Under the pieces are notes generated by a model. The model did no database searches and was not told the origin of the DNA. It was given only the letters and a program-made list of their open reading frames with translations. Positions 31,716 to 58,736 of a DNA stretch of 64,000 nt are shown here, one piece after another; the stretch's first letter is position 1, and every line of letters starts with the position of its first letter. Location: contig JASXTE010000002.1 in NCBI GenBank assembly GCA_030280995.1, positions 35,297,183 through 35,361,182 on the forward strand. The letters are read 5' to 3'. Position numbers and translations under genes: made by a program. The DNA comes from Hemileia vastatrix (taxonomy: Eukaryota > Basidiomycota > Pucciniomycetes > Pucciniales > Zaghouaniaceae).

Positions 31716-31756
31716 CACCACAGAAAATTTGGGGGGGTATTGCTAGCAATACCCCT
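31713..31756 (+). repeat. Left target duplication and terminal inverted repeat of copy B
   Basis: ATT at 31713-31715, then CACCACAGAAAATTTGGGGG followed by the 20-bp perfect palindrome GGGTATTGCTAGCAATACCC. The palindrome follows a G-run, so the end could fold into a hairpin just inside the cleavage site. Confidence 0.93.
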
Positions 31757-32610
31757 CATTTAAAAATGTTGGGAAGTGGTTGGAAAGCTGTTGGAAGGCT
31801 GTTGGGAGTTCATTGTGAAACCAGATTTAAATTAATTGGACAAAGATTTGGTAATCAGTTAGACCTAGGTTCAACCAAACTCAATCACAGGTTTCTTGGA
31901 GCTTGGTGATTACTTTGATTTTGAGCTGAGCACAGATTGAGCAAAGCTTGAACATATCATTTAACATATCATAATATTCACTTTCCCATCTTGTGGAAAG
32001 CAAAATTTGATATTCGTTCTAAGAATATCTACATATATTTTCTTGCCAAGTTGGTAACAGAAGGTTAAACTGTAGTATCTCAATTATTACACTAGACTAC
32101 ATAGATATTTGATAAAACATACAATTCAAATCAATTTTAATATTATTGAGATCACCATAAGTGTCTTTCCAAAGACTTACAAAAAGTATGTTAGTATCAA
32201 GATATCGTTCTAGGTAGTAGTTTCAATTTGGATTTTGAACTGACATCTAAAGCATTTTACTATTAGACAGAAACATAAATAAGTGTAATAAGAGTGAAAT
32301 TATTCTATTTTGTGATTATAATGTAACAATAATGCACATTTTTATTGAGAAAATTTTTCTTCCTCCACAAACCAAAATTTACTCTATAGGCTCAAGATTT
32401 ATTTTTAAGACATATTATTCATTTCAGTTATCATTGATTTACTTCCAATATTTATTAAAAAGATAATAATAATACATGTGAAAGAATTATGAGCTTAGCA
32501 TAGCATATGCTAAAAAGTTATTTTGTCGTTTTATTCAAAACTGATTCTTCATTTTTTGCTTCAATTCATCTTTTAACAACCACTATCTTCAGATACTATT
32601 CTTACTTAAT
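31757..32610. other. Left subterminal non-coding region, copy B
   Basis: Same as 14159-15012 in copy A, reversed. Contains short GGAAG/TTGGAA and TGAGC repeats and should include the SNF2 promoter. Confidence 0.55.
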
Positions 32611-35038
32611 ATGTCAAGTCTCAGATGTGTTGGACAGTTCTCAATAACAATCGATCAAATTTATATGAATGTAATTTCAAGATTTCAAAACTCACCGACC
32701 CCCACAATTTTACAGCGAGGCCATTCGAATGTTCATATTTTTGGACTATTTGAAGAAAGAAAACCAACCTTGTTGGTAATCTTTCTCAAGTGCAGAGTCA
32801 GCACATTGGACCACTATTGGGTGACATTGGCTCTGGATCTCACCATTTAAACCAAAGAAGTGCCTTGAATCCTATGAAGCCTTTCTATTTTCATGCTTAC
32901 TTGGTTCCAGTTTTTGGTAATCAGTATCAACTTTGGGGATGCCTCTTTTCTTCAAGTACACTAATCAGTCTTGCTAAAGAAGCATTTTCTTCTGCACAAA
33001 TCGATTTATGTCCAATCCTGAACTACGACTCCACTATCTTTTTTAATATCCCGCATGTAATTTTTGAAGGCTCTTTCCAAATATCTCAGAGTACTCAAGA
33101 TTGGAAAGCTGATCAACTTATCCGAGGAATCAAAACAGTTCTCAAAACACATCAACTTCAAGCAATAAATTTTATGATTGACAATGAACGAATGTTAAAG
33201 GAAAAGTTGGATATCATGTGGAGGCACCAGGACAACCATTGGCTTAGAACTGGATTCGATGACTATAAAGATCAGTTTCCTAACAATCAATTGCCGCCTG
33301 AAGGAAACGGGTCAATACTTGCTGATGATATGGGTTTGGGAAAGACACTTTCAACTCTTTCTCTTATAAGTGCAACTCAAGGTGAAGCAAGACAATTCCA
33401 GGTATCAGAAAATCAAGAAGGTATTAATCGGAGTTCAGCCACACTGATTATATGCCCCCTGGCAACACTATCGAATTGGATCAATGAAATAAGTGTGCAC
33501 TTTGAAGATAATGCACTTCCTTTCAAGGTTCTTTATGGGAAGGATTGTCAAAATACTAATGTCAATGAGCTACAGGACACTGCTATTGTTTTAACGACCT
33601 ATGAAATAGCTAGCCCAACGATGTCAAAAAATCAAAGCCAAAAAAAGATACCGGTGACTCAAATGCTCTTTTGGTATAGAGTTGTTTTAGATGAAGCTCA
33701 GTTAGTGCCCATTTCTATATCTAAAACTTAAAACTTAATTTTTATTATCAATTTTTATAAATATTCTTTTAGTTACATTAAAAATCCTTACTCGCAGAGG
33801 GCTCAAACAATATTTGACTTGGAATCCCAACACCGACTATGCTTGACTGGAACTCCACTTCAGAACAGGCCCACTGACCTTCAAAGTCTCATATTTTTTC
33901 TTAGAATCGAAAAGTGGCAAGAAGACTGGTTATGGAAGAATTTCCTTTTTCCAGGTTTGCAAAAAGGAAAGGCTAATTCTATTAAATCAATCAATCACTT
34001 AATGAAAGTCATAAGCCTACGTAGAACAAAGGATGCAATTTTGTCTCTTCCAAAAAAGATTCAAAGGGGGATATCGGTTCAATTAGCAGATCCATGGAGG
34101 TCTAAACTTGATGTGCTTCAAGAAGGATTCACTGAGCGATATGGGCCCTCCAGAAGCACTGACTTCCCTTGGGACTCATCTGAGTTTCTAAGAGAGCTGA
34201 TGATTTTAAGAAAATTCTGCAACCATCCAATCTACGAAAATCTGGATGAAACTCCAACTTTTGATTTCACCTGGCAGCATTCCGCAAAGATTTGTCATCT
34301 TATAGGCCACTTAAAAAACTTTTTGTCTGGTGAAAGGGATATAAATTTTCCAAAAGCTGTTATATTCTCCAACTTTGCAGACTTTTTGCAGATGTAAGTG
34401 ATTCTATAATGAATTGTTTTACAAAATTGTGTTGGCTTATTAAAAACAATTTTCTAGTATTTCAAAATAGAATAAAAATGGCTTTAGATGACCACAATAT
34501 TAGGTATACCCAGCTTACGGGTGAACTCAGCCGGACAAAGCGAGACAAAAATATGCATGAATTCCATTTTAATAAAAATTGCCAAGTTTTGGTTGGAACG
34601 ATTCAGGCTGCAGGAGTGGGTATAGATCTCAGGTGTGCTCAAAATGTATATATAATGGTGAGCTCAATGTCTTTTATTTCATATTAAGAACAAAAATATT
34701 AAATTTTTTATATGTTCAATGTTGAAATAGGAGCCAAATTGGAATCCAGCAGTTGAGCAACAGGCTGTTGATCGGCTGTATAGAATGGGGCAGCAAAATG
34801 AAGTAAATGTTTTGAATTATTTTGTACAAGGAAGTATAGAATTCAGCATGTATAAGATTCAAAGGAAAAAAATGGAGCTAACAATGTAAGCCAAATTTCA
34901 TTTCTATAAATTTTAATGATAATAGTAATCATTAAAATTATGTTTTTGTTTTCAAGGCTAAGTGTCCCAAACAGTGGAAATGAGGAGTATGAGTGTGCAA
35001 ACCTATTATTAAGGGAGTTTGTCAATCACTCACATTAG
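32611..35038 (+). pseudogene. SNF2-family ATPase/helicase, frameshifted copy B
   Basis: Exons 32611-33700, 33773-34393, 34471-34657, 34731-34885 and 34957-35038, matching the intact copy A gene. One C is missing from a CCC run at 32768-32769 (CCAACCTTG here, CCAACCCTTG in A). The shift falls at about codon 53 and leads to a stop at 32848-32850, before every helicase motif. Translation could in principle restart downstream (ATG at 32878 is in the correct frame), which would retain the whole ATPase core but lose the N-terminal ~90 residues. All motifs (ADDMGLGKT, DEAH across the intron, LTGTPLQN, AVDRLYRMGQ) are otherwise intact. A sequencing or assembly error in the C-run cannot be excluded. 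Confidence 0.85.
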
Positions 35039-36143
35039 AGGAACAAAGAATTTCAAGGAGAGCAGGTAAATTTATGGGATTTTGAGGATTTAAAAGTCTG
35101 AGTTGTTGAGGATTTAGAGATGCAAGATATAAGGGAGAATAACAGTCATTCGGCAAACCCCGGGGGACATGAGAAGGATTAAGGTTAGGGGATAATGTTG
35201 AAACCAAACTGATTCTTTTGTACAAGGCCAAGTCCTTTAGCACACTGCCAGAGTAGGTTGAATTATCTCGAATATCAAAGTGTTGTTGGTCAAGATATTG
35301 TGCAACTTTAGAAAAATCTTCAGACCTCCATTGCATTAAGATACGTCTTAACGATCCATCATTATCAATTTCGGTGTCTGAACAACATTTGATGTTTGTG
35401 AAAAGGTTGTGATAAGTTTCACAATGTGGAAGTTGTTTAAGAAGTTTAGTTCGGTTAACTGAATTCTAAGAATCTTTGTTATTTGAAATAAAGGTCATAA
35501 ATAAAAACGGTTGAAAAAAAAGGGATTTTCATACTTTTTTTTTTATTCTATATTTATGCTTTCTCACTTTGATTATTTCTTGAGAGCTATGAGAATCCTT
35601 CCCAAGTCTTAATCTATCAGCATGACCTAAAAACCAACGGTGAAGAACTCCTATTTGATTTGAGAAGCTAATTTGAGTTGAGTCAATTGGATATGCAATC
35701 AAATTATTGGTTTTTAAGGCATTGTCCCAGTGTTTAATGAGAATATTTGCCAAGACCTGGTTCCATTTGTCAAACCAATCTAGGTTCCAAGCGAAAGTTG
35801 ATCCTGGGAAACCACACATGCGAAGGTGCTCAATAAAAGATTCACGGAAAATTGGTGGAAACTTTTCTGAAACCGCTGAATTTGATTCTGGATGAGGTAG
35901 TTCAAAGGCAATGTTGCAAGAATTCATGTCGAATGATGAAAATCTGTCTAATTGCTCTTCAGTAGGGTTTTGTTTCCATCCATTTGATTCTGGTGACATA
36001 TCCAAAAGTGAACGACAAAAATTGTGTATAGATCTACAAAAGTGAGAATTGAATGGAGGCAAAGTCTCATTAAAAATTCTATTAAGTGTTCTTGTGTTTG
36101 TGGGCAGGTTTCCATGAGGAAAGTAAGAGCTACTAGGGTTCAT
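35022..36143 (-). CDS. Transposon accessory protein 1, copy B
   Basis: Exons 36143-35535 and 35465-35022, 350 residues, identical in predicted sequence to copy A. It is convergent with the SNF2 gene, and the two stop codons overlap by 17 bp (35022-35038), so their transcripts must overlap and could pair. Conserved blocks shared with accessory protein 2 are the W...WNQV region, the basic KYRIKKK run and the LPNDCYSPLYLASL block. The family is unknown to me; the paralogy is the only firm statement. Confidence 0.75.
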
Positions 36144-37218: not shown

Positions 37219-40200
37219 ATGCCTCCATTTTTTCATGTATGTCAATGTCAAGATCTTGGATGTGTCAATAGAAAGTATCAAACTTCTTCTGGGTCCTTTG
37301 AAGTTGGTATGGCTTTCAAAAGCTCTAATTCTTATGCAAAACATCAAGAGGAAAGAAATAGGAAGGCCCAGATGGTTATTTCTTCCAACAATCCACTTAA
37401 CATTGGAAGTTCCCGCTCCACAGAAACAGTAAGCTGTATATCTATAGTTCAATGTGAGAATTAAAGTCTTTATGATGTTTCAATGATTTATTACATAGGG
37501 GCAGTTGCTATTGGGGGCAGAAGTATCTTCAACAGTCTCTAGAAACTCAAATCTCGGGGAACGGTATAGCCAAATAATTATGTGGCAGGCAGCAAAGCTT
37601 TCTCTGATTCATCATTTGAGCAAAGAAGGTTGTACTCAATTTTTGAATGAAGAAATTAAGAAGCTCAAACTTCTAGGTGATAGTGGAATACTGGATTCTG
37701 ATAGCATTGTCCGCCTGGTCCCACGCTCGATAGATACAGTTTTTAGTCGATTAAAGCTCAATCAATCATTTTTCACTAAAACATGCTGTCCTAAATGCTT
37801 TGCTCTTTATGAGTATAACTCTGAATCTCAACCATCTATACTATGTTGCAATCAACCGTTTCTTTCATCATCAAAGCGCTATTTAAAAATGTTTGGAGCA
37901 GGACAAATTGCAGTTAAATGTGATGAAAGGCTGTATTTGATGGAGGAACATCAAGAACATGTAAAATACTTATCTCTTAAAACATTTCATCACCATTCTT
38001 TTATCGACTGGCTTAAGGAAAAGATCAAACTGTTCAAATTTGAGCTTCTGATTGAGAAGAAAACCCCTGTGGCAGAACGTGTAGAGTGTGATTTGATGAA
38101 GGATGTTTGTGATGGTTCAATTTGGAAAAACTTTCCCATAACCACTCCAGCTCTGGATAGCAATGATGATGAATATACGATAACTTCAGGCAACTTAATG
38201 TTTACTTTATATGTCGACTGGTTTAGGCCTGGTGGCAATAGGATTGGAGGTCATCAGAAGTCTGTAGGCAATATTATGATGGTGTGTATGAACCTACCTC
38301 AAGAAGATAGATACAAAATGGAAAATCTTTTTTTGTATTCTATTATACCCGGACCAACAGAACCCACAAGTGAACAGCTTAATCACCTTCTAAAACCACT
38401 GGTTAATGATCTACAAACTCTATGGGATGGTATATTGATTGAAAAGACACATCTTTATCCACAAGGCCGGAAATTAAGAGTTGCATTGTTCTCTTTGATA
38501 GGTGACATTCCTGCAATACGAAAATTGGCTGGCTTTTCGAGTCACTCTGCAAAAATGTTCTGCTCTTTCTGTAATATCTCTAAAGATGAAATTAGTGAAA
38601 AGAATGTGGGAAATTTTTCATTACGGAATCATGAGGATCATATGTGCTGGGCAACAAAGTGGAAAAATTCTAAGTCACATTGGGAGCGTGTATCAATTGT
38701 TCAAAATCATGGGGTACGATGGAGTGAGCTGAATAACCTTGAATATTGGCGTCCAACTGAATATTGCTCAATTGATGTTATGCATTCACATATGCTTGGC
38801 AACCTAAAAGATCACAGTCTAAGCTATTTTCAAATCCAAAATGCAGCAAAAGATCTAGAAAGAAAGCTGGAAAAGGATAAAAATTGGCATGTAAGAGAAG
38901 AAGATGATGATTTCTTTTCTGATACTTCACTGCACAAACATTCAAAAAAACGTAGAAGTAGCTTAAGCACCACGAATAATGATGATGATGATACAGGACA
39001 CACGAGACAGCACAAGCGGCAAAGACGTACGAGTTCAAGACAGTCATCAAGTCATCATGGACTAGATAATGAAGGATTGGGAACAAATCGATCAAGAAGC
39101 CAGAGTAGGTCATCCAGCTCCAAATTTATTCCTCCATATAGCGATGTGGCCTCAGTACAGTCTCAAAGCAGTGACAGTAGGAATTCATTGTATAACTTAA
39201 GGCAAAGAAGCATTAGCATATCACAGAGTGAAGGATCTCACTCATCAAATGAGACAGCTAGAGATGAAGAAAATAAAAGGAAAGGTAAGGAGAAAGAAAA
39301 TGAAGGTAGTAGTAATCCACGAATCACAGCAGCAGAGCTACAGGTTGTATGGAAGATGATTGATCAAGTAAGAAGACCTTCCTGGCTAACACGAGTTCCA
39401 AAATCAGTAGGATCTAAAAAGGCAGGATCCCTCAAGGCAGCAGAATGGCACATGCTGTATACTCTCTACTTCCCTTTGTCACTTATACCCCTTTGGTTTG
39501 AAAAATTTAAAGAATCTGAATCTTCAGCTTCCTCAGCTGATAAACCAAGAGAATATTATCTTCTCAAGTCACTTGTAACATTATGCTCGATCACCAATTT
39601 TTTGACATTAAAAAATATACAGACTAATGAGCTTAAAGATCTAGATCAATTTCTGTTAGAGTATCGTGAGTGCCTTGAAGAGGGTTGGAAGAATATTAAT
39701 GCAAAGCCAAATCTGCATATCACTCAACATTATCCTGAAATGATAAAGCGTCTTGGTCCACCATCAGGTACAGCTACTTGGTCTGGAGAGCGGGTGAATC
39801 ATATATTATCTGAAATTCCAAACAATCACCATCCACGTATGTAATGTTTGTAAGAAATGATTTAAAAACTCAGCTGTGCTAATTTATTAATATTTACCAC
39901 AGGAGAGATACCGCTAACAATGCTCAAACATTGGTATCGGAAGTCTAGGGTATTAGATCTTGGTGAAGCTGAAGATAATGATCAATGTGAGACTAAAAAA
40001 ATCCATATTGATCTCGATAAACAAAACAAATGGATCCATCTAAGTATGGCATTATTTACTAAATGGGTAAGGGCACGAATGGGAAAAGAAACTTCAAGAC
40101 GGGCTTTGACACCATCGGAGAAAAGTGGGGATCGGGTAGTTGAAAATGTAGCAAGCATATTGATACATGGAAAGAGGTTTACTAGTTACCATCGACACAT

Positions 40201-40606
40201 TGCTAATTCAACAATTGAATTCTACTATGGAAAAGATAGCCAGTTTGGGCAAATTGATGATCTTTTCAGATCAAAGGAAGAGATTGATCAAATATATTTA
40301 ATAGTAAGTCCTTTCAAAGAGCTCCGTCCAGAAGAAACATCAAAGGATCCCTATGAGCTTTTCCCACAAGTGCATTGTCGGTTAGTAAGAGTAGCCAAAG
40401 CAACTCAAATTGTGATTAAGAAAGATGCAATAATTGGACATGCAGCTACTGTCGAGCACAAAAAAGGAATGTTTGGAATCAAAGACGAGGTTGTCACTGC
40501 CATTGGACTGCAGACAGTAGTGAGTGAAAAAATTAATCAAATTTATTTTCTGTTGACTAACATCTTTGTGTTAATTTGGGATTCGGGAAATTTGTAGGAT
40601 TGGTGA
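37219..40606 (+). CDS. Tnp2-family (En/Spm, CACTA) transposase, intact, copy B
   Basis: Exons 37219-37428, 37499-39836, 39903-40519 and probably 40598-40606, about 1057 residues. Start chosen at the first ATG before CQCQDLGC. The Tnp2 core is complete: VDWFRPGG (Asp ~310, codon at 38216), IIPGPTEP, GDIPAIRKLAGF (Asp ~406, codon at 38504), FCSFC, DVMHSHMLGNLKDH (Asp ~496, codon at 38774), then SWLTRVPKSVGSKKAG, WSGERVNHILSE, and in exon 3 the LTMLKHWYR block equivalent to the ETMM..F.R of other fungal Tnp2 proteins. The ~150-residue insert before SWLT is rich in Ser, Arg and Asp and looks disordered. This gene is the likely source of mobility for all related elements here. The last, three-codon exon is a guess from splice sites. 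Confidence 0.93.
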
Positions 40607-41023: not shown

Positions 41024-42701
41024 ATGGATGATAATTTTGAAGGGATGTCTGTTGACCCAACCGATTCTGATTGTTTTCCGCCTCAACATACTAATACTGG
41101 AAATACTCCTCCACCACCCTCTGCTGATCCACCTCCAGATGCATCTCAATCTGTACCACCTAATCCTAACCCACCACCTAATCCCAATCCAGGCCAAGAG
41201 TCTCATTCAGAACCGAGAAATTTTAATCCCAATCATCCTTCTGCTTCTGAAAGTGCTGATCAGCAAGCTGATAAGCTAGGAAGAGATTGGGCTAGTGAAG
41301 TATTGAGGGAATTTTTCGGAGACCAATCATCATCTGCTCAGCCTAACCAAGGAGCAAGCACAAGTGGAGCAGGTAAGTAAAATTTGTAGTGTATTCTTTT
41401 ATTGAAAAATAACCAATTTAATTAACTTATTTGAATTGTTAGTGAATCCCTCAATCATTATGGGTATCAGTGATTACCACAGACTCAATTCAGCAGAGTC
41501 TCATGAGCGAGAACGGGGGTTAAGGGCTGTAAGAGGCTTAGTTAGAAGGAATGATGTTCCCAGGAGCTCGGACAGTCTAAATAGAAATATTTACCACTTT
41601 CTGAAGTATTGTCTTGGGGGACCAACACAAATATCAAAATATCCTGCGAGCCCAACACCTTTGGAGATTGAAAATTGGAAAGATTGGAGCCAATTCAAAC
41701 TAAAAACCATTCAAACTGTCCTAACCCAAGTCCAATCTTCTAACCGTGCCAATTCTGCAGCTGATCGACAATTTCTGATAACCAATTCTATAGCCTTCTT
41801 GCGATCCAAAATTCGACTACCCGAATTTTTTCCAGCACCTGAGCCTCGAGGACTAAAAGGAGGAGCACCGATCCCACTTTCTGTCAAAAGAAACTTAGAG
41901 CGTGAATTGCAAGAAAAAGGTTTTCGGAAATTCACATTTGATTGGACTTGCCGTGATTTTTCAGAATCAACTTGGAATCAAGTCATGGGAAGCATAGTAT
42001 GCGACCACTGTACCAGATGGCTCACCACCTTGAATACAATCGATCAGTCAAAGCTTCAGTTCACTCAATGTGTTATTGAGAAATGGGTAGTTAATAAGGG
42101 GAAGGAGATGATAAGGTTGTTTGGGCAAGAAGAGGAAAGGGTAGCAAGAGAAAAGATTGAAAAGAGGGCAAGGGCACAAGTAAAACGTTATCGGACCAAG
42201 GTAAGTTTTTAATTTTACTTTGCTTTTTGTTATTATGAAGCTGATTTAGTTGGAATTCAGATTGCTAGTGCACGCTACAAGTTAGCAAGAGATCTCTGAA
42301 GTGATGTGCCAGGTTTTGTTGTGCTTTTTCATGATACTAGGTGCATCTCTGATATCGAGGAAGGCCCAGCACCAGCCCCAACTGCACCTATCCGAGCTAT
42401 TCCTGGATGGCGAAATCCTGAACTCAATGATTTGTTTAAAAAAATGGATAAGATGACAAAGGACTTAGCCCATACACCAGCTCAAAAAAAATCAACATTA
42501 AAAACATATTCACGGTCATCAGAAAGGACAGTTGCACAAAATGGTATATTCAATGTTCCCAAATACCTCCCCAAGAATTGCTATTCAGCAACATTTTTGC
42601 AAGGATTATCTGTGAATGAACGTGAGTCACTTGGGGTTGGAGCTGATATTGATCTGGTAAAGATTCGGGAATCAATTAATAGAGCATCAACATCATCATA
42701 A
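41024..42701 (+). pseudogene. Transposon accessory protein 2, copy B, with premature stop
   Basis: Exons 41024-41372, 41443-42200 and 42261-42701; 515 residues in the intact copy A version. In copy B the 13th codon of exon 3 is TGA (42297-42299), where copies A and C have TGC, so the product would end after about 381 residues and lose the C-terminal region with LPKNCYSATF. The rest is intact: Pro-rich N terminus, GFRKFTFDW, WNQVMGSIV and the basic RAQVKRYRTK at the end of exon 2. Whether the truncated protein still works is unknown. Two other private changes (Lys for Gln in ADQLG; Arg for Gln in GWQNPEL) are seen against A and C. Confidence 0.8.
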
Positions 42702-42889: not shown

Positions 42890-44880
42890 CTCTTTATGTC
42901 ACATTTATGTATCCATATTAATTTCAATCGAATTTAATGTTGACCAATACATAGTGAATACACGCTATGCCACTTATACTTGCCAGGCATTGCTACCATT
43001 AAATATGCCAGTATCAAAAATTAATTTCGATCGAAATTAATGAGCATGATAATCATGAATTTCTGGAGTCAACTGCTTATTTTTATGCATGGTGCCTTGC
43101 CAACATTAATTTCGATCGAAATTACTTTTGATACTGGCATATTGCATGGTGTCTATTCCTGGAAAGTGTAAGTGGCATAGTGTGTATTCATTACGTATTG
43201 GTCAACATTAATTTCAATAGAATTTAATATTGACATTTTCATATTGAACCCAAACCAGCAAACGACCCAAAAAATTCTTCATAAAACTGCTCATTAATTT
43301 CGATCGAAATTAGTGAGCACCATATACATATTGAATGGTAGTTATATCTGGTGTGTGTAAGTTGTAAAGCTTGTGTTCAATGTTTATTGGTCAACATTAA
43401 TTTTGATTGAAATTAATATTAATGTGTAAATGATATTTACATGCTCAATATGCATTGTAATGTGTTTACTTAACAATAGAGTGCCCTACTTTTCATCTTA
43501 CATAAAAATGCTTGGTAGCATGTCAAATTCAATTTTTATTAAAATTAATGTTGACATGTTACCATGCATAACAGTAAGCAACTGACTGAATAAATTGATG
43601 ATAATCATGAACCTTAATTTCGATCGAAATTAATGTTGCCAAGTGCAGATTGAAAAAAAGCTATGCCACTTACACTAGCCAGGCATATTTACTATTTATT
43701 ATGTATTGGTCAACATTAATTTTTATAGAAATTAATATGGATATGTAAATTTTATATTTACCCTCAACATGTATAGTAAATTTCAATACTTAAAAATACT
43801 TGCCGTCCTTTACATGTCATGCAAAAAAGCATTATATCATTTCAACATTAATTTTGATCAAAATTAATGTTGGAATGCCATTATGCATTGAAACAACTAA
43901 CTGACTGAAAAAGTTCATGATCAAAATGCTCATTAATTTTGATCAAAATTAATGTTGACCAATAAACATTGAACACAAGCTTTACAACTTACACACACCA
44001 GATATAACTACCATTCAATATGTATATGGTGCTAACTAATTTCGATCGAAATTAATGAGCAGTTTTATGAAGAATTTTTTGGGTTGTTTGCTGGTTTGGG
44101 TTCAATATGAAAATGTCAATATTAAATTCTATTGAAATTAATGTTGACCAATACATAATGAATACACACTATGCCACTTACACTTTCCAGGCATATATAC
44201 ATGCAATATGCCAGTATCAAAAGTAATTTCGATCGAAATTAATGTTGGCAAGGCACCATGCATAAAAATAAGCAGTTGACTCCAGAAATTCATGATTATC
44301 ATGCTCATTAATTTCGATCGAAATTAATTTTTGATACTGGCATATTTAATGGTAGCTATGCCTGGAAAGTGTAAGTGGCATAGCATGTATTCATTATGTA
44401 TTAGTCAACATTAATTTCGATCGAAATTAATATGGACATGGACTATGCATAAAATTCCTATAAGTATAGGTAAGCTAAGCAGTTAGATAAACTGGTTTGA
44501 TCAAGTACACCATATAAAAATTGATGTTTTAATGCCTTGGTTAATTTCGATCAAAATTAATATTAAGCCATGCATGTTGAATTTTATCTATGTCTGTGTA
44601 GTCCATGTGAAATGGCTTGTATTCAATATGCAGGGGTCTATATTAATTTCGATCGAAATTATGAGGTTCATTGCCTCATAAATTTGATGGTTTCTGTCAG
44701 TGTTTCATGCATGGTGCCATCTGATACTTGTTGATTCCTATCAAAATTAATTTCAACACCAATATATTGAATACAAACCATGGCACTTACAGTACTTGGT
44801 CATAGCTAAAACTCAATATGCTAGTCTCAAAATTAATTTCGATAGAAATTAATCAGGATCCATGAAGTTTATCAATAGTG
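42890..44880. repeat. Palindrome array centred on TTTCGATCGAAA (copy B)
   Basis: About 18-20 palindromes spaced roughly 90-110 bp. Nine have the perfect core TTTCGATCGAAA (near 43026, 43112, 43298, 43618, 44040, 44228, 44313, 44413 and 44647), most extended to TAATTTCGATCGAAATTA; the others are variants such as TTTTGATCAAAA. Spacers recur as inverted copies: 42910-43400 is complementary to 43950-44435 about a centre near 43675, so the array is a palindrome made of palindromes. Each perfect core holds two CpG sites in an otherwise CpG-poor region. No coding capacity. It lies between accessory protein 2 and the acidic protein in all three copies. Confidence 0.94.
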
Positions 44881-49120: not shown

Positions 49121-50331
49121 TTATATATCTAGATTTTTTAGATTTGTCTTAACATTAGATAAATAATACTTTGCTGATTCTATTTCTTCCTCTATTAAGT
49201 CATCTCTTTTCAAAAAAACTCTCAAAGCACTAATCAAATATTCTAACCTAAATTTTTCTGTTTTAATTTCTAAGTATTCTGAAATATCAATATCAAAAAC
49301 ATTAAGCTTTTCTATAGCATGAAAAAGTCTAGTGCTGATTTGAATAGAAGAACCTATCCTAGTGAAGCCAGGAATTTCATGACATCTTGAGGTAAAATGC
49401 CTTAGTTGATTGGCAGGCCATAATGTCACTGTTATTCCATTAGTTGCTTCAAAGTTGATTTTACTTCGAATTTCGGGAAACATAAGTTCTCCACCTATTT
49501 GTCGTGGTTGGGTCTTATCATACTTCATATGAATGGTGTTTTTTTCTGTATCTTTAGGAAAAAATATTCCTAAAGTATACTCACTTGCATCCTTATCGAG
49601 ATGAACCTCATTAGAGAACCCATTACCATTCCCTCCAGATGTCCAAGTTAAATTACTAGCAAACGGTACACCGTCTTCTTCACTAGAAACTTTTGAAAAT
49701 CCAGGAATACCAAGTTTTGCGCAAAGATTAGTTGCCTCATTGTACTTTACATATGATATTTTTTTAAAAAAATATTCAAAGTACATTGCAATCCTCTTCA
49801 TTCGTTTTTTATATTCATCCGTTTTTACAATATCATCAGTGTATTCATCTGCAAGGAAAAGCATTCAAAAATTCAGTATTTAAATTAAAAAAAGTGATAC
49901 TTACAAATATGTAAAGATTTCTTTCTATCTAAAATAAAGCCACTACCAAACATTTTTCCAAAACCACCAGCTCTTTGATGATAACCATTATTTTTAATTT
50001 CATGTTCGCAGTAAGAAAGATCCTTAATGCATCGCACCGTAGCTTCTAACATATCTAGTTCTTTGAGCTCATGAATTTCAAAAGTCTGCACAAGAACATT
50101 AGGTATTAAGACACCTTTTGGTTTATAAATACTACATCCAGGAAAAAAATTGTAATAATTATTGCAATCTGTCATATTATTTGCATAAGATCGTGCATAG
50201 AAATGTGGCTTCTTCCCGTTTGTATCCATTCCAAGAGCGTTTACAAGTTTCATTCCAGTAGCAATGTCTTTCGCCCACCTATTGTTAGAGTTCTTCCCTG
50301 GCCGTTTTTTTTTTTTCAAATCGTTACTCAT
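49121..50331 (-). CDS. Tet/JBP-like 2OG-Fe(II) dioxygenase
   Basis: Two exons, 50331-49905 and 49848-49121, joined in phase 1 across a 56-bp intron; 384 residues. The start is the ATG before SNDLKKKKRPGK rather than the longer open frame from 50385. Family members use Fe(II) and 2-oxoglutarate to oxidise 5-methylpyrimidines in DNA, in the nucleus. The double-stranded beta-helix signature is complete: HLD at 225-227 (iron-binding HxD, in NEVHLDKDASEYTLGIFFP), a GGELMFPE strand-turn at ~261, the distal His 293 (LRHFTS) and Arg 306 (FTRIGSSIQIS) for 2-oxoglutarate. This order and spacing match the Tet-like oxygenases abundant in rust fungi. The Lys-rich N terminus may aid DNA binding or nuclear import. 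Substrate is inferred; related oxygenases acting on RNA or protein cannot be excluded by sequence alone. Confidence 0.82.
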
Positions 50332-50533: not shown

Positions 50534-50930
50534 TTTCAAAGGTATACTTTATTAAATTATACATATAAAGAGTATAGCTTTATCCTGTATGCATTCAGCA
50601 AGTACGAGATTTGGCTCTACACTTAATATTAATAATATAATGAAAGTATAACTCCAATACACTAGTAATATTAAAAAATTTACGGAATTATGATATCCAC
50701 ATATATAAAATGAAAAATCTTGCTCTGATCAATATATTGACTTAGAAAGTTATACTTCAATAAATTATTAATTTTTAAATTGTAGCATTGTCCTGTATGC
50801 TTTCAGCAAGTACGAGACTTTGAAACAACTTAAAAATCAATAAATTAAAGGTAAAGTACAAACAATCTAATTATTATTATGAAAAGCAAAACATTATCCT
50901 GTATGCTTTCAGCAAGTACGAGATGATGTT
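50534..50930 (-). promoter_or_regulatory. Three-copy motif upstream of the Tet-like gene
   Basis: A ~30-bp element, whose core reads CTTTCAGCAAGTACGAGA and is preceded by T(A/G)TCCTGTATG, occurs at 50581-50609, 50789-50817 and 50895-50923 in the same orientation, spaced 208 and 106 bp (about 2:1). Weaker flanking similarity (TATACTTYAATAAATTATT) suggests decayed ~105-bp tandem units. The first copy lies 250 bp upstream of the Tet-like start codon. The conserved core in a fast-decaying AT-rich background suggests binding sites. Confidence 0.7.
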
Positions 50931-52077
50931 TTACTTTTCATATTAATAATATAATGGTTGAGAAAGTATTAAAGAAATATAGAAAAATGATAAGCAAAAC
51001 ATGAACTTACATGTCTATAAAATCTTCTTCCATTTGTAGCTGATTGATCAAAATTAATTATAAAGTTTATTTTATAATCACTGTTTTAAAAAATAAATGG
51101 TTAGATAAATAAATTGAACATTTTTGATAAGGAATAAAGAAAAGTAAATTGACAAACAAATAAAAAAACTTTAAGTTAACTGAAAAAGAATTTTTTTATA
51201 ATGAATCGAAAGGGTACAGTAAAAGATACCATAAAAATAAATTCAGAATTAGAATCATTAGATTAACTTGTCAAAAGTGTAAAAAAGTGTAACAAACCAA
51301 AATGCTATGAAATGCAATAGCAAGAAAAATTTGCTTACCGGTAATCAGATAAGGTCAAGAAAATAGTACCAATAATTCAAAATGATAAAGCAAAAATATG
51401 ATTGATAATTTTTGAAAAAGGTAAGTGAGAAAGAGAAAGGAAAAATAAATTGGGTGGCAAACAGATGTATATATCATGAATTTTCACTGATCACATTTTC
51501 AAAAAAATGCAGCTCTCCAAGTCATATGATAAACTTCATCTAAATTCCAAGAATAATGTTGCCAAGGCACTTTACACAGCATGATCATTTTTTCCTATGC
51601 ATATACTAATTCCAGCTAGAATTTACTTGGCTGCATGTTGTACAGATGCACATTTGTGGAACACTGAATTTCACATCTAAAAAAAATTGACGCCACATAA
51701 TTCTAGCTACCATGTTTCACGTAGCTAAAAAACATACACTCATCACATTTAAATTTACATTGCGCCAAAATTAATTCATTTTTGAATTTTTTTAAAGGAA
51801 ACTATAATGTGCACCACCTATTTCTAAAATATGAACCTCCGCACCATATTAAATTGGGAGACTTTTAATTATGCAATTTTTTTGCCGTGACCTTTTTCCT
51901 GATCTTACTTGGTTCAAAATATTGAAACATGGCCAATGTTGATGAAAGAAACATTTGATTTTGTTTCTATGTGTAACAATGGAAGGCTGTTTCTTACTGG
52001 CGAAAGAGTGTTGTATATTTTATTTGAACAATATTTTATTTTTTTATGTATTTTATTTAAAAAATTTACTTTTTATT
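50931..52077. other. AT-rich interval, nothing recognised
   Basis: Distal 5' flank of the Tet-like gene. Only short chance ORFs; no repeat or RNA gene recognised. Confidence 0.5.
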
Positions 52078-52854
52078 GCAGCCAGATTTATACTGGCTGC
52101 TTTTTAGAAACCTTAATTTATGACCCAAGCCTTTGAAATTGGCTTGGGTCCCTTACATTGCAATTTAGTACTTCCAGCCAGGTTTCCCCTGGCTGGAAGT
52201 GTCTCTTTCAAGCAATCGAAGTCGCTAAAAGCGACTTCGATTGCTTGCTGTAATGTTTGCCACCCTCCCAGCTAATTTACTAGGCTGGGAGGTGGCCAAA
52301 GCAGTGTGCAACGCGCGTTGCTGCTGCAAGTAACGCGCGTTGCACAATCGCTACCATATTTCATGCAGCTGATATCAAGTCAGCTGCATGAGATATGCGC
52401 AGCATGTGCAATGCGCGCTGCATGCAGCAGAAACGCGCGTTGCATGCAGCAGCAATGCAGGCTGCATTGCTGCTGCATGCAACGCGCATTTCTGCTGCAT
52501 GCAATGCGCATTACTTGCAGCAGCAATGCGTGTTGCATGTGCTGCATGCAGTGCATTGCACAGCCAGTTTTTTTCTGGCTGTGCAATGCACACAGAGAAA
52601 CCAAAGTCCCTGCAAGGGACTTTGGTCTCTAAAATGGAAGCGACTTTCCCTACCAGGTGCAATCTGGTGGGAAAGTGAGAGAAACGTTAGACCGAAGTTG
52701 TTTGAAAGCAACTTCGGTCTTAAAAACATTAAAAATCATAAAAAAAAAAATGAGAAATGTAGAAAAAAAAAAAATTAAAAATTAAAATGTGAGTAAAAGA
52801 AAAAAAATAAGTTCTAGTGATACCAAAAATCCAAGCCAATTTCATTTGGCTTGG
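52078..52854. repeat. Block of 13 strong hairpins with unrelated stems
   Basis: Successive stem-loops with short loops: GCAGCCAG (52078), GACCCAAGCC (52122), ACTTCCAGCCAG (52170), CAAGCAATCGAAGTCGCT (52209, 18 bp, 3-nt loop), CTCCCAGC within 52257-52299, GTGCAACGCGCGTT (52306), CATGCAGCTGA (52362), a large one with 48-bp arms centred on 52461 (52413-52509, about four mismatches), GTGCATTGCACAGCCAG (52551, 17 bp), ACCAAAGTCCC (52600), CTTTCCC...ACCAG (52643), AGACCGAAGTTG (52689) and CCAAGCCAA (52831). Each is followed after 3-12 nt by its complement. The stems are GC-rich in a surrounding that is about 80% AT. Overlapping short ORFs on both strands (Cys/His/Ala-rich) are artefacts of the GCA/TGC-rich palindrome. 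Confidence 0.93.
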
Positions 52855-55008
52855 TTATTTAATAATTAATTTTTAATACATTAAATTTAAAATTCAAACA
52901 CCATAATATATATGAATTTTTTTTATATGAATATTATAAATTTAATCTACCTCTTTCTCATAATTATATTTATAATTTTGTTTTTTTAATTTTTGACATT
53001 TAAGTTTATTTTTTGGAAATACAAAATTAAATTTTCAGCTAAATTTTTTAGTAAGGTAAAATAAATTATAAATTTGACATTTTGTAATTGAATAATGAAA
53101 AAAATTTTAAATTTATTTAAAAAATATTTTTGTTAGAAGAATACAAATATTTTAAGTGTAGAAATATGGTGCAAATTGTAAGTAAAAAAAATTATATTTT
53201 TTTTTGTGAGGGGTTATTTCTATTTTTAAAAATATTTTTCAAAAACATTCATTAAATACTGAATTAAATTACTTTGAAACTCAAATTTTTTGTAAAATAA
53301 TTAAAAATGAAATAATAATATTGTTGTATTTGATATAAAATTTGAATTGGTAATATTAATTTCTCTTTAAGTAAATTTGAAAATCATTTAAAAAGACCAT
53401 GTTGATAAGTACTTCATTTTTGATATAAAATGGTTATATATATATCTTATATATATTTCTTGAGTGTTATTTTTATATACATTCAATAAAATTTGTAATA
53501 TAAAATGCCATTTAATAATTAATTAATGTTCAACTTAGTTATAACAACTTCATATTTAATACCAGCCACTAGTATTTACTTTTTAATTTAAAACTCCAAT
53601 ATAATATGAGAGTATCCTTATTTTGTCTGTATGTAATGAACAACAATAACAGACCATAAATGAGTGGGTAGTTAATTACAATAAATAGTTGAAGAATAAC
53701 CTATAAGAAATGATAAGTTTATCAAAAAGAGTACATTAAAAAAATATACTTTTGAATTTTTTTTGATATAATTTGGGTAGTTAAATGAAAATTTAAATTA
53801 TCAGACATCAAAATGGATAAAATCTAAAAGTAGTGTTTATATAATAAGCCTCATAAAAAAAAAGGATAAAAAATCTACTATGTAACTAAATTATTAAATA
53901 TTAAGGTATTATTAAAATTATTGAAAAACTTATTTTACAGTTATAATGAAATCTAAATGTGAAAATAATGGTGGGATAATAGTAAGACTATGTGGAAACA
54001 CTTTAATTTATACATACTTTCAACTATGTTCAGATAAAAAAATTGTTAAAATTGTATAATAACATCTAGTTAATAGTGATGCAATTTTATTTAGATCAAG
54101 AATAAATTTTTCTGAGGAAAAACTAATTAAATTGAGATATGGCCATCTCCTTTCAAGAGATAGAATAATAATAAAAATTTAAAAAATTATAATAAGTATT
54201 CTTAATCACCATTTTTGAAAAGTCTCTAGTAAAATTCATTATAATATATCATTCATTGATTACATTATATGGAGTTTCATCTTGAAGTAGTGATGTGCAG
54301 CTTTGAACTTATGTTATGAAAAACAAAAAAGTTAAAAAATATATAGTTATACTAATGAAAAAGCCAAAAATAAAAATACTATTATAAATTAAAAAAATAA
54401 AACTACATAAATTTTATTCTGCTCTAATGATGGAAGGGTACTATGTATGAATTTCCACATGTTAAATCCAAACCTGCTTTAAGGCTAGTTTACAGGTAGA
54501 GCTATTAAGTTTCCTTAAATTCTAAAAATAACTTATGCATTTTACTAATTATTTTTTTCTTGTTTCTTTCCAAAGTTGTTAGAGTTGCTTAATTAATACT
54601 GTTATCTTGATTGTAAGATATATAATTTTTTTTGAATACATGATTTATTGTTTCAAAAATTATATTATAAATTTAAATCATTTATTTCATTTTCTAAAGC
54701 TTCATTGTCAAAGACACAACTCCATTTTCTATTACTTAACAAATATATAAAATGTGATAGTAAAATTTAAGGAATTTTCTTTTTTAGAGGGTCAAACTAT
54801 ATTGTGAAGATTTTTATCTAGAAATTCTTGTACTCTAAAACCAAATAATTTTCTCCCTTAAGTAAGCCATTTCAAAAATATGAGAATATAAACAAGAATA
54901 TTAACTTATCTTATTTTTATTTTCTTTACTGAAAGTTTTAGTTCAATCCCTTTTTTTATATGACATTAGTATAAAAACATGGTTAAATGCTACTATATAA
55001 TTAATTTT

Positions 55009-55049
<41 letters not shown>

Positions 55050-56757
55050 TTAGAACGTCATCCTTTTTTATTTACTTGAATAAATGGCTCAATTATAATA
55101 CCCAACACTTATTAATGTTTCCCAAACTCAATAACAAATTTCTCATATGAAATATTAGCTTCTAATATAAGAAGTTTATCTATAGATGATATTCAACATG
55201 TGATTTTACTTTTTAGATTCAGCTAAAATTAAACAAAAGGAGAAATCATGCATATGTGTATAAATGGTAACCATATGTTACTTAGAGGATTGTGAAATTC
55301 ACTCATCAGAATGGTTTAAGTATTAAAATAAATTGAGGTCATTATTTTCTAGTATTTGAAACTAATTAGGAAATTATTCTAAAAATATATTTTAATGTGT
55401 ATCATGTTTAAAAAGTTGGAAATATGATTTTTGAAAATTGTGAGTTTCTTATGAGATACCAAGCTTTAGTTTACATTGTTTCAAGTAGAATAGAATTTTA
55501 GTATTAGAAATTGAAAGCAATGTACCATTATCAGATTTTAACTGTGTTCTACTTATAGAATGATTACATAACATTAAACATTATTTAAATCAAAAAGGTT
55601 TAAAAGATATTTAGAGTTTTACCAAATTTCACCATTTATTAATCTTTGATTTGAAAACAAACTATGATGTACACTCACTAGAAATAAGCAATCCCAATTT
55701 TAACATAATTTATCAATCCAAAAATAATGAGTCAATTAACATGAAAATATATATTATTTCAAAACCAATTCTCTAGATTTAAAATATGATGCTTTAATGA
55801 AAAATTATTACAAAACTTTAATGCAATGAAGTCTCTTAAAAAATTCAAAAATAGAATATCAAAACAAGTAATTTCTGCAAAAAAAACTACTAACTATTGT
55901 AGATAAAGCATAAAAATAAGTCATATTTTTTAAAAAAATGATCTAACAATATTTATTTTTGTTAAAAAAATCAAAACATTGTTAAGTTTGCTTGTTATAA
56001 TAATGTTAAAATCCACTAAACATTATCTAAAGGTGGTAAAATATGTTAAAAATAAGTTGAATTTTATGAGATAAAAATCAACAATTTTGTATCATTTCCT
56101 GTTGTGCTATGACTTTATTCCACCCTTTTTATCTGATTCTTCCAGTATTACTTTGCTATGATCACTAGTTTTCAAGTTAAAATTTACAAATGTTCATTAT
56201 ACTTGATAATATGAAAAATAACTCAAACTTTTATAACTACAAAATAAGATTTTGTAACTCCTTCTTTCAATCAATATTTGAAGAAATTTTAGTTTATTTG
56301 AGTAATGATTTTAAGAATAACAAAAAAATTGAAATTCACAAGGAATTATTTCCAGAGACTATAATTATTTACTTGTGTAATGCATGAGCTACTTATCAAT
56401 GATGTAAAACATCAGAAAAGTAAGTTATAGTTATAAATCTACAGATTATACTGTTTCTGGTATATATATCTTCAATAAATCTTTTAAACTTATCTTAGCC
56501 TACATACCACACAATAGAAAATCATTATATTAAAAAAGGAAAAAATTCTATGATAATATCATAAAGAATGATAACCATGGATTAATATTCCATAAAAATG
56601 GTTAATAATATTTTAAGAGAACCTAAATCAGTATTCTTTCATCAAAATATATCCTTTTTGTCTTTGTAATTTATTCCAAACAAATTTTTTGAAAGTTGAA
56701 TCTATATATCTAATGCCAAAACCACTATTAAGTTCCCTCTTAGACTTTTTAAGAAAT

Positions 56758-56788
<31 letters not shown>

Positions 56789-58429
56789 TATTTATCAAAA
56801 ATTGAAATAAAGAATAAAAACATAATTTTATTTACCTTTAATTATTTAAATATAGAGTATTTTCAGAATGCATTGTGGTTACTTGTGAAGGTTAGAAGAT
56901 TTGAAGTTGGATTTATGAGTTTTTAGAAGGGCAAATATTGTAAAATTCTTTCATAAATATTTATTTCATAGTTTCAAATGTTGAAATCTACAAACTAATG
57001 GGATTTAAAATTATATTGAGATTTAAAATCTGTTTTCTACTCAAGTAAAATAAAATAAAATGATGATATCAAAATTGAAATTAAGTTTAAACTTTTGATA
57101 TGCTCTATCTTCAATTTTATTGATAGTGCATCAAAAATTTAATAATATTTTTTTCCTTCATCACTTTTTACATAAAAGATAGTTTTATCATTTTATGAAT
57201 TAAAGATTGCTTATATAAATTTAACATCTATGTCAACTGTTTATGACTATTAATCTATATAATAAATTTTTTAGAAGAAAAAATAACATCAGTATATACT
57301 GACTTTGAAATTATTCAATTTAAAATAGTTTACAGGTAGATAATGAAGGGTGATTTCATTTTTGAATATGAACTATAGAAGTCTTATTTTATCAATTTTA
57401 ATTCTTTTTGAGCTCAAATGTATCCACCGCAACTTAAGTAAGAATAAAAATTATTTTTATTGAAATTTACATGAGAAAGTATGCCTATTATTCAAAATCA
57501 AACTTGCTCTAATGGTGTTTTTCAATCATTATTTCCATTCATAACAATAAAAAACATTTCAATTTGCTGATGTTTTAGTTTTTGATATCCCCAAGTTTAT
57601 ATCTCAGGTGTACTATTCACAAAATTATTAAAAATATAATTTTCGAAATACATGATAAACTTGAAAGTGAGGGGGCATTAAATTTTTAAAAATGAATTCT
57701 AAATTCAGGATGGATAGTATTTTTTCTATTTTCACAAATGAACAATTTTTCGTTTCAATTAATCCAGAAAGAAAATTTTGTTGTAAGCATATTATATTAT
57801 ATTTATTATGATTTTAAATACTATATTTTCAAGATTTGTGTTTAATATTTCCTGTGAAAGTTAATGTTAATGTGAATTTAAAGTAAGCTTGAAGAAATTT
57901 AATCAATAGGCATATTGGATATTTAAAATAATATTTTGCTCCAATCTTGAATCATCCTGGGCTAAAAAATATCCCAAATAAGGTTTTTGTGGGTCAATTT
58001 GGATTTAAGTAGGATTAAGTGAGGTTTAATAAAGGACAGATAAAAGGCTAAATTCATTACTAGTGACTTTTTTCTCAAAATAGTTATAAAATATTTATCA
58101 TTCTGGACTCAAGCTTCAATAAAGTTGAATTGAAACAGAGATAATTTCTAGCAGCACAACACCATATTTACAAAGGTGTAAAATACCTCAAATATTACTC
58201 ATAATATAGGAAGGCAAGGAATCTACAAAATTCACATTTCAAACGAGGATTTATATTTTGAATTTGAAATTGAGAAATGGAATATTATTTTCCAATTTAA
58301 ATATCTATTAGTCATTTTAACAAAAGTTTTCAGTAATCAGATTGAATTTTGATGGTATTTTGTTGTAGATTAATCATTTTGATGAGACATTTACTCAAAA
58401 TTACTGGTTTCGTTTCTAATATTCCATGT
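52855..58429. other. Long AT-rich non-coding right arm of copy B
   Basis: About 5.6 kb, very AT-rich, without any convincing gene on either strand. It contains TA dinucleotide runs at 55013-55042 and 56757-56788. Near 58139-58178 there is a decayed terminus-like string (TTTCTAGCAGCACAACACC ... CAAAGGTG). Confidence 0.6.
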
Positions 58430-58692
58430 GAAATTCATTATGAATCTTTTTGAAAGTGAATAGTTGACATATTGGATATGCAAAAGCTTATGTTAGATCA
58501 AAGTGAGATCAAAGGGAGCTTAACTGATGATCAAATTAGGATTTTACAAGATCAAACGGTGATCAATGTAGGTTCATCTTGAGCTCAATCTGTGACAAAT
58601 CTCTGACTAAATGTAAGGCCAAACAATTTCCTACATGGTGATGATGTGTGCATAATTCAAGCATAGATTTGTGGCTCAACGGAGCTCAAGCA
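58430..58692. other. Right subterminal region, copy B
   Basis: Contains repeated GATCAAA/TTAGATCAAAG, GAGCTCAA and GGTGATGA motifs near the end, comparable to the left subterminal region and to the relic termini at 15410 and 19730. Confidence 0.55.
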
Positions 58693-58736
58693 AGGGGTAT
58701 TGCTAGCAATACCCCCCCATTTTTTCTGTGGTGATT
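58693..58736 (-). repeat. Right terminal inverted repeat and target duplication of copy B
   Basis: Complement of the left end: palindrome GGGTATTGCTAGCAATACCC, C-run, then CTGTGGTG ending at 58733; followed by ATT (58734-58736). It differs from the left repeat at two bases only. Confidence 0.93.

What the first reader, a model, noticed from the sequence alone, without database searches (positions are those of the whole stretch)
31716..58733. A complete 27-kb CACTA-type DNA transposon carrying a Tet-like oxygenase, an SNF2 ATPase and three uncharacterised proteins
Seen: matching terminal repeats, a 3-bp target duplication, an empty site in a related copy, and six genes inside one unit, five of them also present in copy A. 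Known: En/Spm elements usually carry one or two genes and are mostly under 15 kb; fungal Tet/JBP genes have been linked to a different transposon class (Kyakuja-Dileera-Zisupton), from memory. Inference: this is a cargo-bearing transposon with its own chromatin and DNA-modification tools, linking a Tnp2 transposase to Tet-like and SNF2 activities.
Basis: partly seen in the sequence, partly recalled or inferred. Interest (0 to 1): 0.92.

Follow-up and report, generated by a model that had tools for sequence, protein, structure and literature searches.

The report
Methylated CACTA transposon carrying Tet and SNF2
A 27-kilobase jumping element, whose two ends are each repeated unchanged more than 700 times in what is likely a rust-fungus genome, carries a predicted DNA-demethylating (Tet-like) enzyme and a predicted chromatin-remodelling motor beside its own predicted transposase, a toolkit that would likely help it escape the DNA methylation that appears to be eroding its copies.

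Summary
Window 31716-58733 is one 27,018-bp unit with 40-bp inverted ends (CACCA...TGGTG) and a 3-bp duplication, inserted in an older relative. It encodes a Tnp2 transposase, a Tet-like oxygenase (PF20515), an SNF2 ATPase and three unknown proteins, two of them paralogues. It is no chance composite: the exact left end occurs 728 times, the right 798, a Tet 40-mer 832 (reversed controls 0). Of 91 left ends examined, 64 have a right end within 40 kb, and 54 of those 64 hold the exact Tet 40-mer; 13 of 13 copies checked have a perfect duplication. SNF2, transposase and one unknown gene show purifying selection against a distant relative (dN/dS 0.19-0.29). Young copies mutate about 42-fold faster at CpG, a likely footprint of CpG methylation, the expected Tet substrate. 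New as far as searched: SNF2 and Tet together in one 27-kb CACTA, with open copies, a methylation footprint and an extraordinary hairpin array. The window's own SNF2 is frameshifted. New variant of a known kind.

The parts
31713..31715 (.). Target site duplication ATT (left)
58734..58736 (.). Target site duplication ATT (right)
31716..31755 (+). Left terminal inverted repeat; contains a perfect 22-bp palindrome; 728 exact copies in the genome
58694..58733 (-). Right terminal inverted repeat; 798 exact copies in the genome
32611..35041 (+). SNF2 ATPase gene, 5 exons; 711 aa open in 18 of 22 copies; frameshifted near the N-terminus in this copy
   Evidence: Pfam PF00176/PF00271; rust group; copies; dN/dS 0.19 vs D
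35022..36143 (-). g2, 350 aa, 2 exons, no Pfam family above cut-off; paralogue of g4
   Evidence: dN/dS 0.21 vs D; open in 18 of 22 copies
37219..40597 (+). Tnp2-type transposase, 1080 aa, 3 exons
   Evidence: PF02992; dN/dS 0.285 vs D; open in 18 of 22 copies
41024..42701 (+). g4, 495 aa, 4 exons, no Pfam family; paralogue of g2
42900..44900 (.). AT-rich palindrome block (repeats around TTAATTTCGATCGAAATTAA); also in copies A and C
45889..48321 (+). g5, 653 aa, 6 exons, no Pfam family above cut-off
49121..50331 (-). Tet-like 2OG-Fe(II) oxygenase, 384 aa, 2 exons; HxD at 225-227, distal His and Arg316 by reading
   Evidence: PF20515 E=7e-24; motif positions; 832 exact copies of a 40-mer; open in 5 of 7 copies
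50538..50954 (.). Three 103-nt repeats on the 5' side of the Tet gene
52122..52720 (.). Hairpin array: 9 perfect hairpins with arms of 10-26 bp in 600 bp; length hotspot between copies
52800..58693 (.). Noncoding right part; no stop-to-stop frame over 70 aa
1..15053 (-). Copy A of the same element (part inside the window; about 27.08 kb between its ends)
25885..31715 (+). Left part of the older relative C (g2, transposase) that the element split; no SNF2 of C was seen
58734..64000 (+). Right part of C (transposase end, g4, palindrome block), continuing outside the window to g5, Tet and the hairpin array

Best explanation
This is a CACTA/EnSpm DNA transposon of 27 kb, amplified in what is likely a rust-fungus genome, whose predicted transposase would move it by its inverted ends while a predicted Tet-like oxygenase and a predicted SNF2 motor likely counter the CpG methylation that appears to silence its copies. 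Shown: the unit, its ends, 3-bp duplications, hundreds of copies of each end and of the Tet 40-mer, shared gene content in the copies sampled, purifying selection on SNF2, g2 and transposase, and a strong excess of CpG-to-TpG changes in young and old copies. Inferred: (1) the Tnp2 protein cuts and inserts at the CACCA ends; (2) the host methylates the copies at CpG; (3) the Tet protein oxidises that 5-methylcytosine, so that promoters and ends are freed; (4) the SNF2 protein opens or clears chromatin for the Tet or transposase; (5) g2 and g4 may be DNA-binding partners that give self-specificity. The pairing would be a two-gene counterpart of kinetoplastid JBP2, in which a Tet/JBP domain and an SNF2 domain sit in one protein.
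For: Domains. Unit and copies. Selection against relative D (dS 0.78-1.20): SNF2 0.19, g2 0.21, Tnp 0.285 (D itself has 2, 1 and 5 stops, so the values are if anything too high). CpG footprint: of 146 singleton changes in 22 copies over 9.6 kb, 66 are C:G>T:A and 50 of these fall on the 226 CpG bases; rate 0.221 per CpG base against 0.0052 per other C/G base, Fisher p about 1e-46; all four NCG contexts are raised (ACG 0.15, CCG 0.26, GCG 0.15, TCG 0.26). Old copy C: 142 of 202 CpG sites of the element read TG or CA there; the reverse, 23 of 57 CpG of C read TG or CA in the element. Rust precedent: CG is the methylated context and young TEs are preferred in Puccinia graminis (PMC8444563, passages). 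Precedent for the pair: mutating SNF2 residues of JBP2 inhibits its base-J synthesis (PMC10057400, passages). Precedent for transposon-borne anti-silencing: VANC (PMC10398659, passages). Tet on EnSpm in rusts: PMC12730594.
Against: No activity was measured. Selection on Tet could not be tested: the only Tet compared beyond the young copies is in the decayed copy C (dN/dS 0.58, 3 stops), and D's Tet was not found where expected, nor were its g5 and the rest of its g4. C's SNF2 was not seen either. The predicted fold of Tet exon 2 failed (pLDDT 36.5), so the triad rests on motif reading and Pfam. The copies look methylated in spite of carrying Tet. CpG decay has no non-transposon control from this genome, and some single-copy changes could be base-calling errors at methylated sites. 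Ten of 64 two-ended copies lack the exact Tet 40-mer, and 9 of 92 Tet 40-mers have neither exact end nearby.
Confidence: 0.68

Rival explanations
1. Tet (and perhaps g5 and the hairpin array) are passengers: a capture that happened to be in the founder of a recent burst and is retained only because the copies are young.
For: Copies form a star: 146 singletons against 14 shared variants, so gene content could be inherited without selection. Tet is broken in 2 of 7 copies. A 5.0-kb derivative shows that the interior can be lost.
Against: Copy C, 6-10% diverged and decayed, already has the same order Tnp-g4-palindromes-g5-Tet-array. Only 2 of the 66 left ends paired within 60 kb are shorter than 26.5 kb. 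SNF2 and g2 are selected over dS near 1. Tet genes recur in seven rust transposon lineages (PMC12730594).
Confidence: 0.15
2. The Tet protein makes a lasting modified base (5hmC or another) as an active mark or shield, or acts on the genome at large, rather than restoring cytosine on the element itself.
For: Copies still lose CpG quickly. Kojima 2025 lists this option, and reports oxidised cytosine on other transposons in Coprinopsis.
Against: Nothing here separates it; the six proteins include no glycosyltransferase or other modifier by Pfam.
Confidence: 0.13
3. The SNF2 protein serves transposition rather than anti-silencing: a Rad5/Rad8-like motor that helps repair or replicate the gap left by a 27-kb element.
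For: Best solved relative is RAD5 (E=2e-48); the group is known for DNA-damage tolerance (recalled).
Against: It lacks the RING insertion of RAD5/HLTF (alignment A2) and sits in a separate rust group.
Confidence: 0.12
4. The unit is an assembly artefact or a chance composite of nested insertions.
For: The region is densely nested: A, B, C and D all meet here.
Against: 13 of 13 perfect TSDs, and left and right ends pair at 26.5-28 kb in 43 of 91 cases with 0 same-strand controls.
Confidence: 0.02

Closest known systems
TET+ EnSpm families of rust fungi (Kojima 2025, PMC12730594)
   Same: CAC..GTG ends, 3-bp TSD, EnSpm-type transposase and a Tet/JBP gene, in rusts
   Different: A term search of the main text finds no SNF2 (0 occurrences); their lengths and other genes are in a supplement I could not read, so they may prove to be relatives of this one
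Classical CACTA/EnSpm (En/Spm, Tnp2 transposase)
   Same: Tnp2 domain PF02992, CAC.. ends, 3-bp TSD
   Different: Six genes in 27 kb instead of one or two; Tet and SNF2 (size of classical elements recalled)
KDZ (Kyakuja-Dileera-Zisupton) Tet elements
   Same: DNA transposons with a Tet/JBP gene
   Different: 7-8 bp TSDs (PMC12730594) and another transposase; here 3 bp and Tnp2
Plavaka
   Same: EnSpm-related transposase; some carry Tet
   Different: Ends TGT..ACA or CATCA..TGATG (PMC12730594); here CACCA..TGGTG; no Plavaka Pfam match
JBP2 of trypanosomatids
   Same: Joins a Tet/JBP oxygenase with an SNF2 motor
   Different: One host fusion protein acting on thymine; here two predicted proteins on a transposon
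VANDAL/VANC (Arabidopsis)
   Same: Transposon-borne anti-silencing
   Different: VANC is a sequence-specific binder, not an oxygenase; another class of element
Fungal DNMT5
   Same: Its SNF2 part is said to be related to Rad8 (PMC13297926, passages); this SNF2 is nearest to RAD5 in the PDB search
   Different: DNMT5 maintains CpG methylation; relation to this SNF2 not tested

Membership tests
CACTA/EnSpm | Terminal inverted repeats beginning CAC | tested here: met
   40-bp ends CACCA..TGGTG, 2 mismatches
CACTA/EnSpm | 3-bp target site duplication | tested here: met
   13 of 13 copies checked
CACTA/EnSpm | Tnp2-type transposase | tested here: met
   PF02992, 56.7 bits against a cut-off of 28.6; 4 of 5 protein hits bear PF02992
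CACTA/EnSpm | DDE triad with C(2)C and H(3-4)H motifs | tested here: inconclusive
   Candidate D310, D406, C425xxC428, histidines from 499, E834 found by string position only; not aligned to known elements
CACTA/EnSpm | Repeated subterminal motifs for a second binding protein | tested here: inconclusive
   Only weak 7-8-mer sharing between the ends
TET+ EnSpm of rusts | Tet/JBP gene inside a complete EnSpm unit in a rust | tested here: met
   PF20515, copies; rust host inferred from the SNF2 relatives, not named by a tool
TET+ EnSpm of rusts | Tet of the PU type | not testable with these tools
   Published sequences not held; protein search with the Tet gave no hit at E<=1e-3
KDZ | KDZ transposase and 7-8 bp TSD | tested here: not met
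   3-bp TSD; no KDZ family in the Pfam scan (that Pfam holds one is recalled)
Plavaka | Plavaka transposase; ends TGT..ACA or CATCA..TGATG | tested here: not met
   CACCA ends; no Plavaka family in the Pfam scan (that Pfam holds one is recalled)
Tet/JBP oxygenase | Tet-like domain with HxD...H...R | tested here: met
   PF20515 85.4 bits against a cut-off of 27; H225xD227, distal His, R316 by reading
Tet/JBP oxygenase | Oxidises 5-methylcytosine | not testable with these tools
   Needs an assay
SNF2 (Rad5/Rad16 group) | Two helicase lobes with intact Walker A, DEAH and arginine-finger-like motifs | tested here: met
   PF00176, PF00271; DMGLGKT, DEAH, DRLYRMGQ in A2
SNF2 (Rad5/HLTF proper) | RING finger between the lobes | tested here: not met
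   No insertion there in A2; rust group apart from HLTF/RAD5
Starship giant elements | Tyrosine recombinase captain | tested here: not met
   Pfam scan of six proteins shows Tnp2 and no recombinase

The most novel reading that the evidence does not exclude
The element is a self-contained anti-methylation machine: a transposon-borne split version of JBP2 in which a Tet oxygenase strips 5-methylcytosine while a RING-less Rad5/Rad8-type SNF2 motor, of the same broad ATPase group as the host's maintenance methyltransferase DNMT5, opens methylated chromatin or competes with DNMT5 for hemimethylated CpG; the pair has ridden rust CACTA elements long enough to drive repeated bursts that built up their giant genomes.
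Probability: 0.27. Interest if true: 0.86.

Novelty: new variant of a known kind. Interest (0 to 1): 0.64.

Why it matters
It gives a concrete, recently amplified system in which a predicted DNA demethylase and a chromatin motor ride on one transposon, while the sequence of its copies appears to record CpG methylation acting on them. That makes a long-standing question testable by comparing copies: do transposon-borne Tet enzymes really help elements escape silencing? It also offers one explanation of why some rust genomes grew so large, and links a group of unnamed rust SNF2 proteins to mobile DNA.

Tried and rejected
Rejected: chance composite (13 of 13 TSDs; end pairing with zero same-strand controls). 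Rejected: KDZ, Plavaka and Starship membership (table). Rejected: hypermutation confined to TCG as the sole source of the C-to-T changes: all NCG contexts are raised. Considered and left open: a known RNA in the window, the array included (Rfam, 0 matches at gathering score).

Led nowhere: protein search with the Tet (no hit); PDB search with the Tet (only a chance ribosomal match, E=0.5); single-sequence fold of Tet exon 2 (pLDDT 36.5; not used); D's Tet at the expected distance (not found); whole-genome PF20515 search (not completed); SNF2 40-mer count (not completed); host species (not named by any tool). Of nine answered literature searches, 19 and 48 gave 0 papers; others gave the works cited or unrelated ones, seen as listings unless said otherwise. 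That Tet and SNF2 have not been described on one transposon rests only.


Full report
What is there. Window 31716-58733 is bounded by 40-bp inverted repeats that match at 38 of 40 positions, start CACCA, and each hold a perfect 22-bp palindrome. The three bases ATT flank both ends. The sequence either side of the unit is one older relative, copy C, 92-94% identical inside the window and 90-91% in its last part outside it; the unit sits inside the last part of C's transposase gene, whose uninterrupted form is the unit's own gene. Copy A, on the minus strand at 1-15053 and 99.8% identical, runs out of the window to a right end in L053 with its own ATT pair, a span of about 27.08 kb; what lies between the window edge and its last 241 bp was not read.

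Genes. With introns read by eye (GT..AG), six genes appear: SNF2 ATPase (PF00176, PF00271), g2, Tnp2 transposase (PF02992), g4, g5 and, on the minus strand, a Tet-like 2OG-Fe(II) oxygenase (PF20515). g2 and g4 are paralogues on either side of the transposase (BLASTP 3e-11, 23% over 278 residues); g5 shows no real match to g4 or Tet and was not compared with g2. Motifs of the Tet (H225xD227, a distal His, R316) and of the transposase (candidate D310, D406, CxxC 425-428, E834) were located by string position only. In this window copy the SNF2 is frameshifted near its N-terminus. Read as they stand, 18 of 22 copies have an open 711-aa SNF2 (counted by hand from the printed stops, whose own tally line read 0 of 22 because I had set the last exon past the stop; 87 of 88 introns there have GT..AG ends, one has not), 18 of 22 an open transposase and 18 of 22 an open g2, and 5 of 7 an open Tet. 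The 22 are A, B and the first 20 of the 40 left-end hits.

How many, and do the genes travel together? In the 747.6-Mb genome that holds the window, the exact left 40-mer occurs 728 times, the right 798 and a CpG-free Tet 40-mer 832 times, with no match to the reversed control. Those listings name only the first 100 places each; of the 100 left ends I used the 91 that lie in the range the right-end listing covers and dropped 9, and of the 100 Tet places I used 92. Of the 91, 43 have a right end at 26.5-28 kb, 64 within 40 kb (62 of them longer than 26.5 kb) and 66 within 60 kb; 25 have none. One right end (C26, 45.30 Mb) serves two left ends. Same-strand controls at 26.5-28 kb: 0. Of the 64, 54 hold the exact Tet 40-mer on the right strand, 47 of them 17.8-18.8 kb from the left end; 9 others are 26.9-34.8 kb long without an exact match and 1 is a 5.0-kb derivative. 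Of the 27 left ends without a right end inside 40 kb, 13 still have the Tet 40-mer at about the right place; of 92 Tet 40-mers, 9 have neither exact end nearby. Scaling 64/91 to 728 would give roughly 500 two-ended copies, near 2% of the genome; this is an extrapolation. By sequence: 20 of 20 fetched left parts (9.6 kb; chosen among 40 scored hits that are identical over the first 600 bp, so biased to young copies) are 99.7-99.9% identical. Comparing by eye, 11 of the 40 left hits have a right hit at 26.94-27.10 kb (each list holds 40 of more than 1300 candidates), and 11 of 11 have perfect 3-bp duplications of differing sequence, 13 of 13 with A and B. Tet is present in 6 of 6 sampled (99.5-99.8%), the hairpin array in 6 of 6, pieces of g4 and g5 in 3 of 3.

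Age and selection. Over 22 copies, 146 changes are found once and 14 are shared: a star, as expected of a burst from one source. Copy C has stops in all five genes that could be compared (g2 in part; its SNF2 was not seen) and dN/dS 0.58-0.88: a dead copy, yet with the order Tnp-g4-palindromes-g5-Tet-array. A more distant relative, D, next to copy A (70-78% DNA identity in the pieces that align), keeps SNF2-g2-Tnp in the same order; against it dN/dS is 0.19, 0.21 and 0.285 at dS 1.20, 1.08 and 0.78, although D has a few stops of its own (Nei-Gojobori in my own script on BLAST alignments). So SNF2 and g2 are old, selected parts of this lineage. For Tet the same test could not be made.

Footprint of methylation. 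Of the 146 single-copy changes, 66 are C:G to T:A, and 50 of these fall on 226 CpG bases out of 3283 C/G bases: 0.221 against 0.0052 per base, about 42-fold (Fisher p about 1e-46). Transversions at CpG bases are 7 of 226 against 36 of 3057 elsewhere (counts, restated), so these rise too, but far less. All NCG contexts are raised, CCG and TCG somewhat more, so this is not confined to TCG, the hypermutation context that Kojima's text cites for Pucciniomycotina. In dead copy C, 142 of 202 CpG sites of the element have become TG or CA. The natural reading is 5-methylcytosine at CpG on silenced copies. Published rust data agree: CG is the methylated context and young elements are preferred in Puccinia graminis (PMC8444563, passages), and DNMT1 and DNMT5 are reported in the rusts studied, one lacking DNMT1 (PMC12210899, abstract and passages). 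Limits: no host-gene control; some changes may be base-calling errors linked to methylation, although the decay in C cannot be.

SNF2. The highest-scoring relatives in the protein search are unnamed proteins of Puccinia triticina, P. graminis and P. striiformis (best 47% over 97%, E=1e-169). In a tree of 26 sequences, the 25 relatives chosen from 120 listed, it groups with six Puccinia proteins (100/100) inside a rust-only set of 11, apart from HLTF/RAD5, and lacks their RING insertion. This is also the evidence that the host is a rust. The best solved relative is RAD5. A 2026 review says that the SNF2 part of the methyltransferase DNMT5 is related to Rad8 (PMC13297926, passages), which invites, but does not test, a link.

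Hairpin array. At 52122-52720 lie nine perfect hairpins with arms of 10-26 bp; five block-shuffled versions of the whole element give 1-4 such hairpins in 27 kb. As RNA the stretch folds to -405 kcal/mol, z=-38 against 20 shuffles, and the other strand does likewise. Copy C's array is shorter and weaker (-241 kcal/mol, z=-13.6), and five perfect hairpins of 9 bp or more remain there. In C the loops of three hairpins are the reverse complement of the element's (TTTCC/GGAAA, AAA/TTT, T7/A7) while the arms are largely kept, and all six sampled young copies differ from the window copy at the central hairpin. Both point to events at the DNA level, with hairpins flipping and resizing; whether the array is used (as RNA, boundary or decoy) is unknown. 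No Rfam family matches.

How it likely works. Tnp2 would bind the ends and move the element. Copies become CpG-methylated. Tet would oxidise 5mC on the element, and the SNF2 motor would give access, as in trypanosomatid JBP2, where mutating the SNF2 domain inhibits base-J synthesis by the same protein (PMC10057400, passages). Plant VANDAL elements show that a transposon can profit from its own anti-silencing protein (PMC10398659, passages).

What is known. Kojima 2025 (PMC12730594) describes Tet genes on many fungal transposons, among them EnSpm families of P. striiformis with CAC..GTG ends and 3-bp TSDs, and proposes escape from methylation (abstract, parts 1-5 of 7 and legends read, supplement not). 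The kind is therefore known. A term search finds no SNF2 in its main text, and the listings of searches show no paper joining the two on a transposon. Iyer et al. 2014 on KDZ is recalled; it is not held. Verdict: a new variant of a known kind, with an unusually complete and testable anatomy.

Noticed in passing
window 52122-52720; L054 2150-2700: Dense array of nine perfect hairpins (RNA fold z=-38); loops of three hairpins are inverted in copy C while arms are largely kept, and the central hairpin is a length hotspot among young copies.
   Followed up: partly
window 42900-44900 and 61887-63398: Block of repeated AT-rich palindromes around TTAATTTCGATCGAAATTAA, with large inverted repeats of about 500 bp, kept between the element and copy C.
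   Followed up: no
window 50538-50954: Three 103-nt repeats on the 5' side of the Tet gene, each with a CCTGTATGC..TTCAGCAAGTACGAG core.
   Followed up: no
G000, 91 left ends in C2, C18, C19 and C26: Nine two-ended copies form a sharp class at 28.5-28.7 kb, some with the Tet about 0.8 kb further in: perhaps a sister subfamily.
   Followed up: no
G000:C26:49863979: A left and right end only 5.0 kb apart: a probable internally deleted derivative, the only one under 25 kb among 66 pairs.
   Followed up: no
L053 (next to copy A): A relative (D) at 70-78% DNA identity with SNF2-g2-transposase in the same order, its nearest aligned piece about 240 bases from the end of copy A.
   Followed up: partly
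protein search: Many unnamed SNF2 proteins of Puccinia triticina and P. graminis score highest with the element's SNF2, and the six aligned closest ones lack a RING; they may be transposon genes that went unrecognised in annotations.
   Followed up: partly
window 15672-18691: Tandem units of about 600 bp, 72-75% alike, beside copy A.
   Followed up: no
window 67336-80455 equivalent (L051, L052): Copy C is interrupted by about 13 kb of other sequence between g5 and Tet.
   Followed up: no
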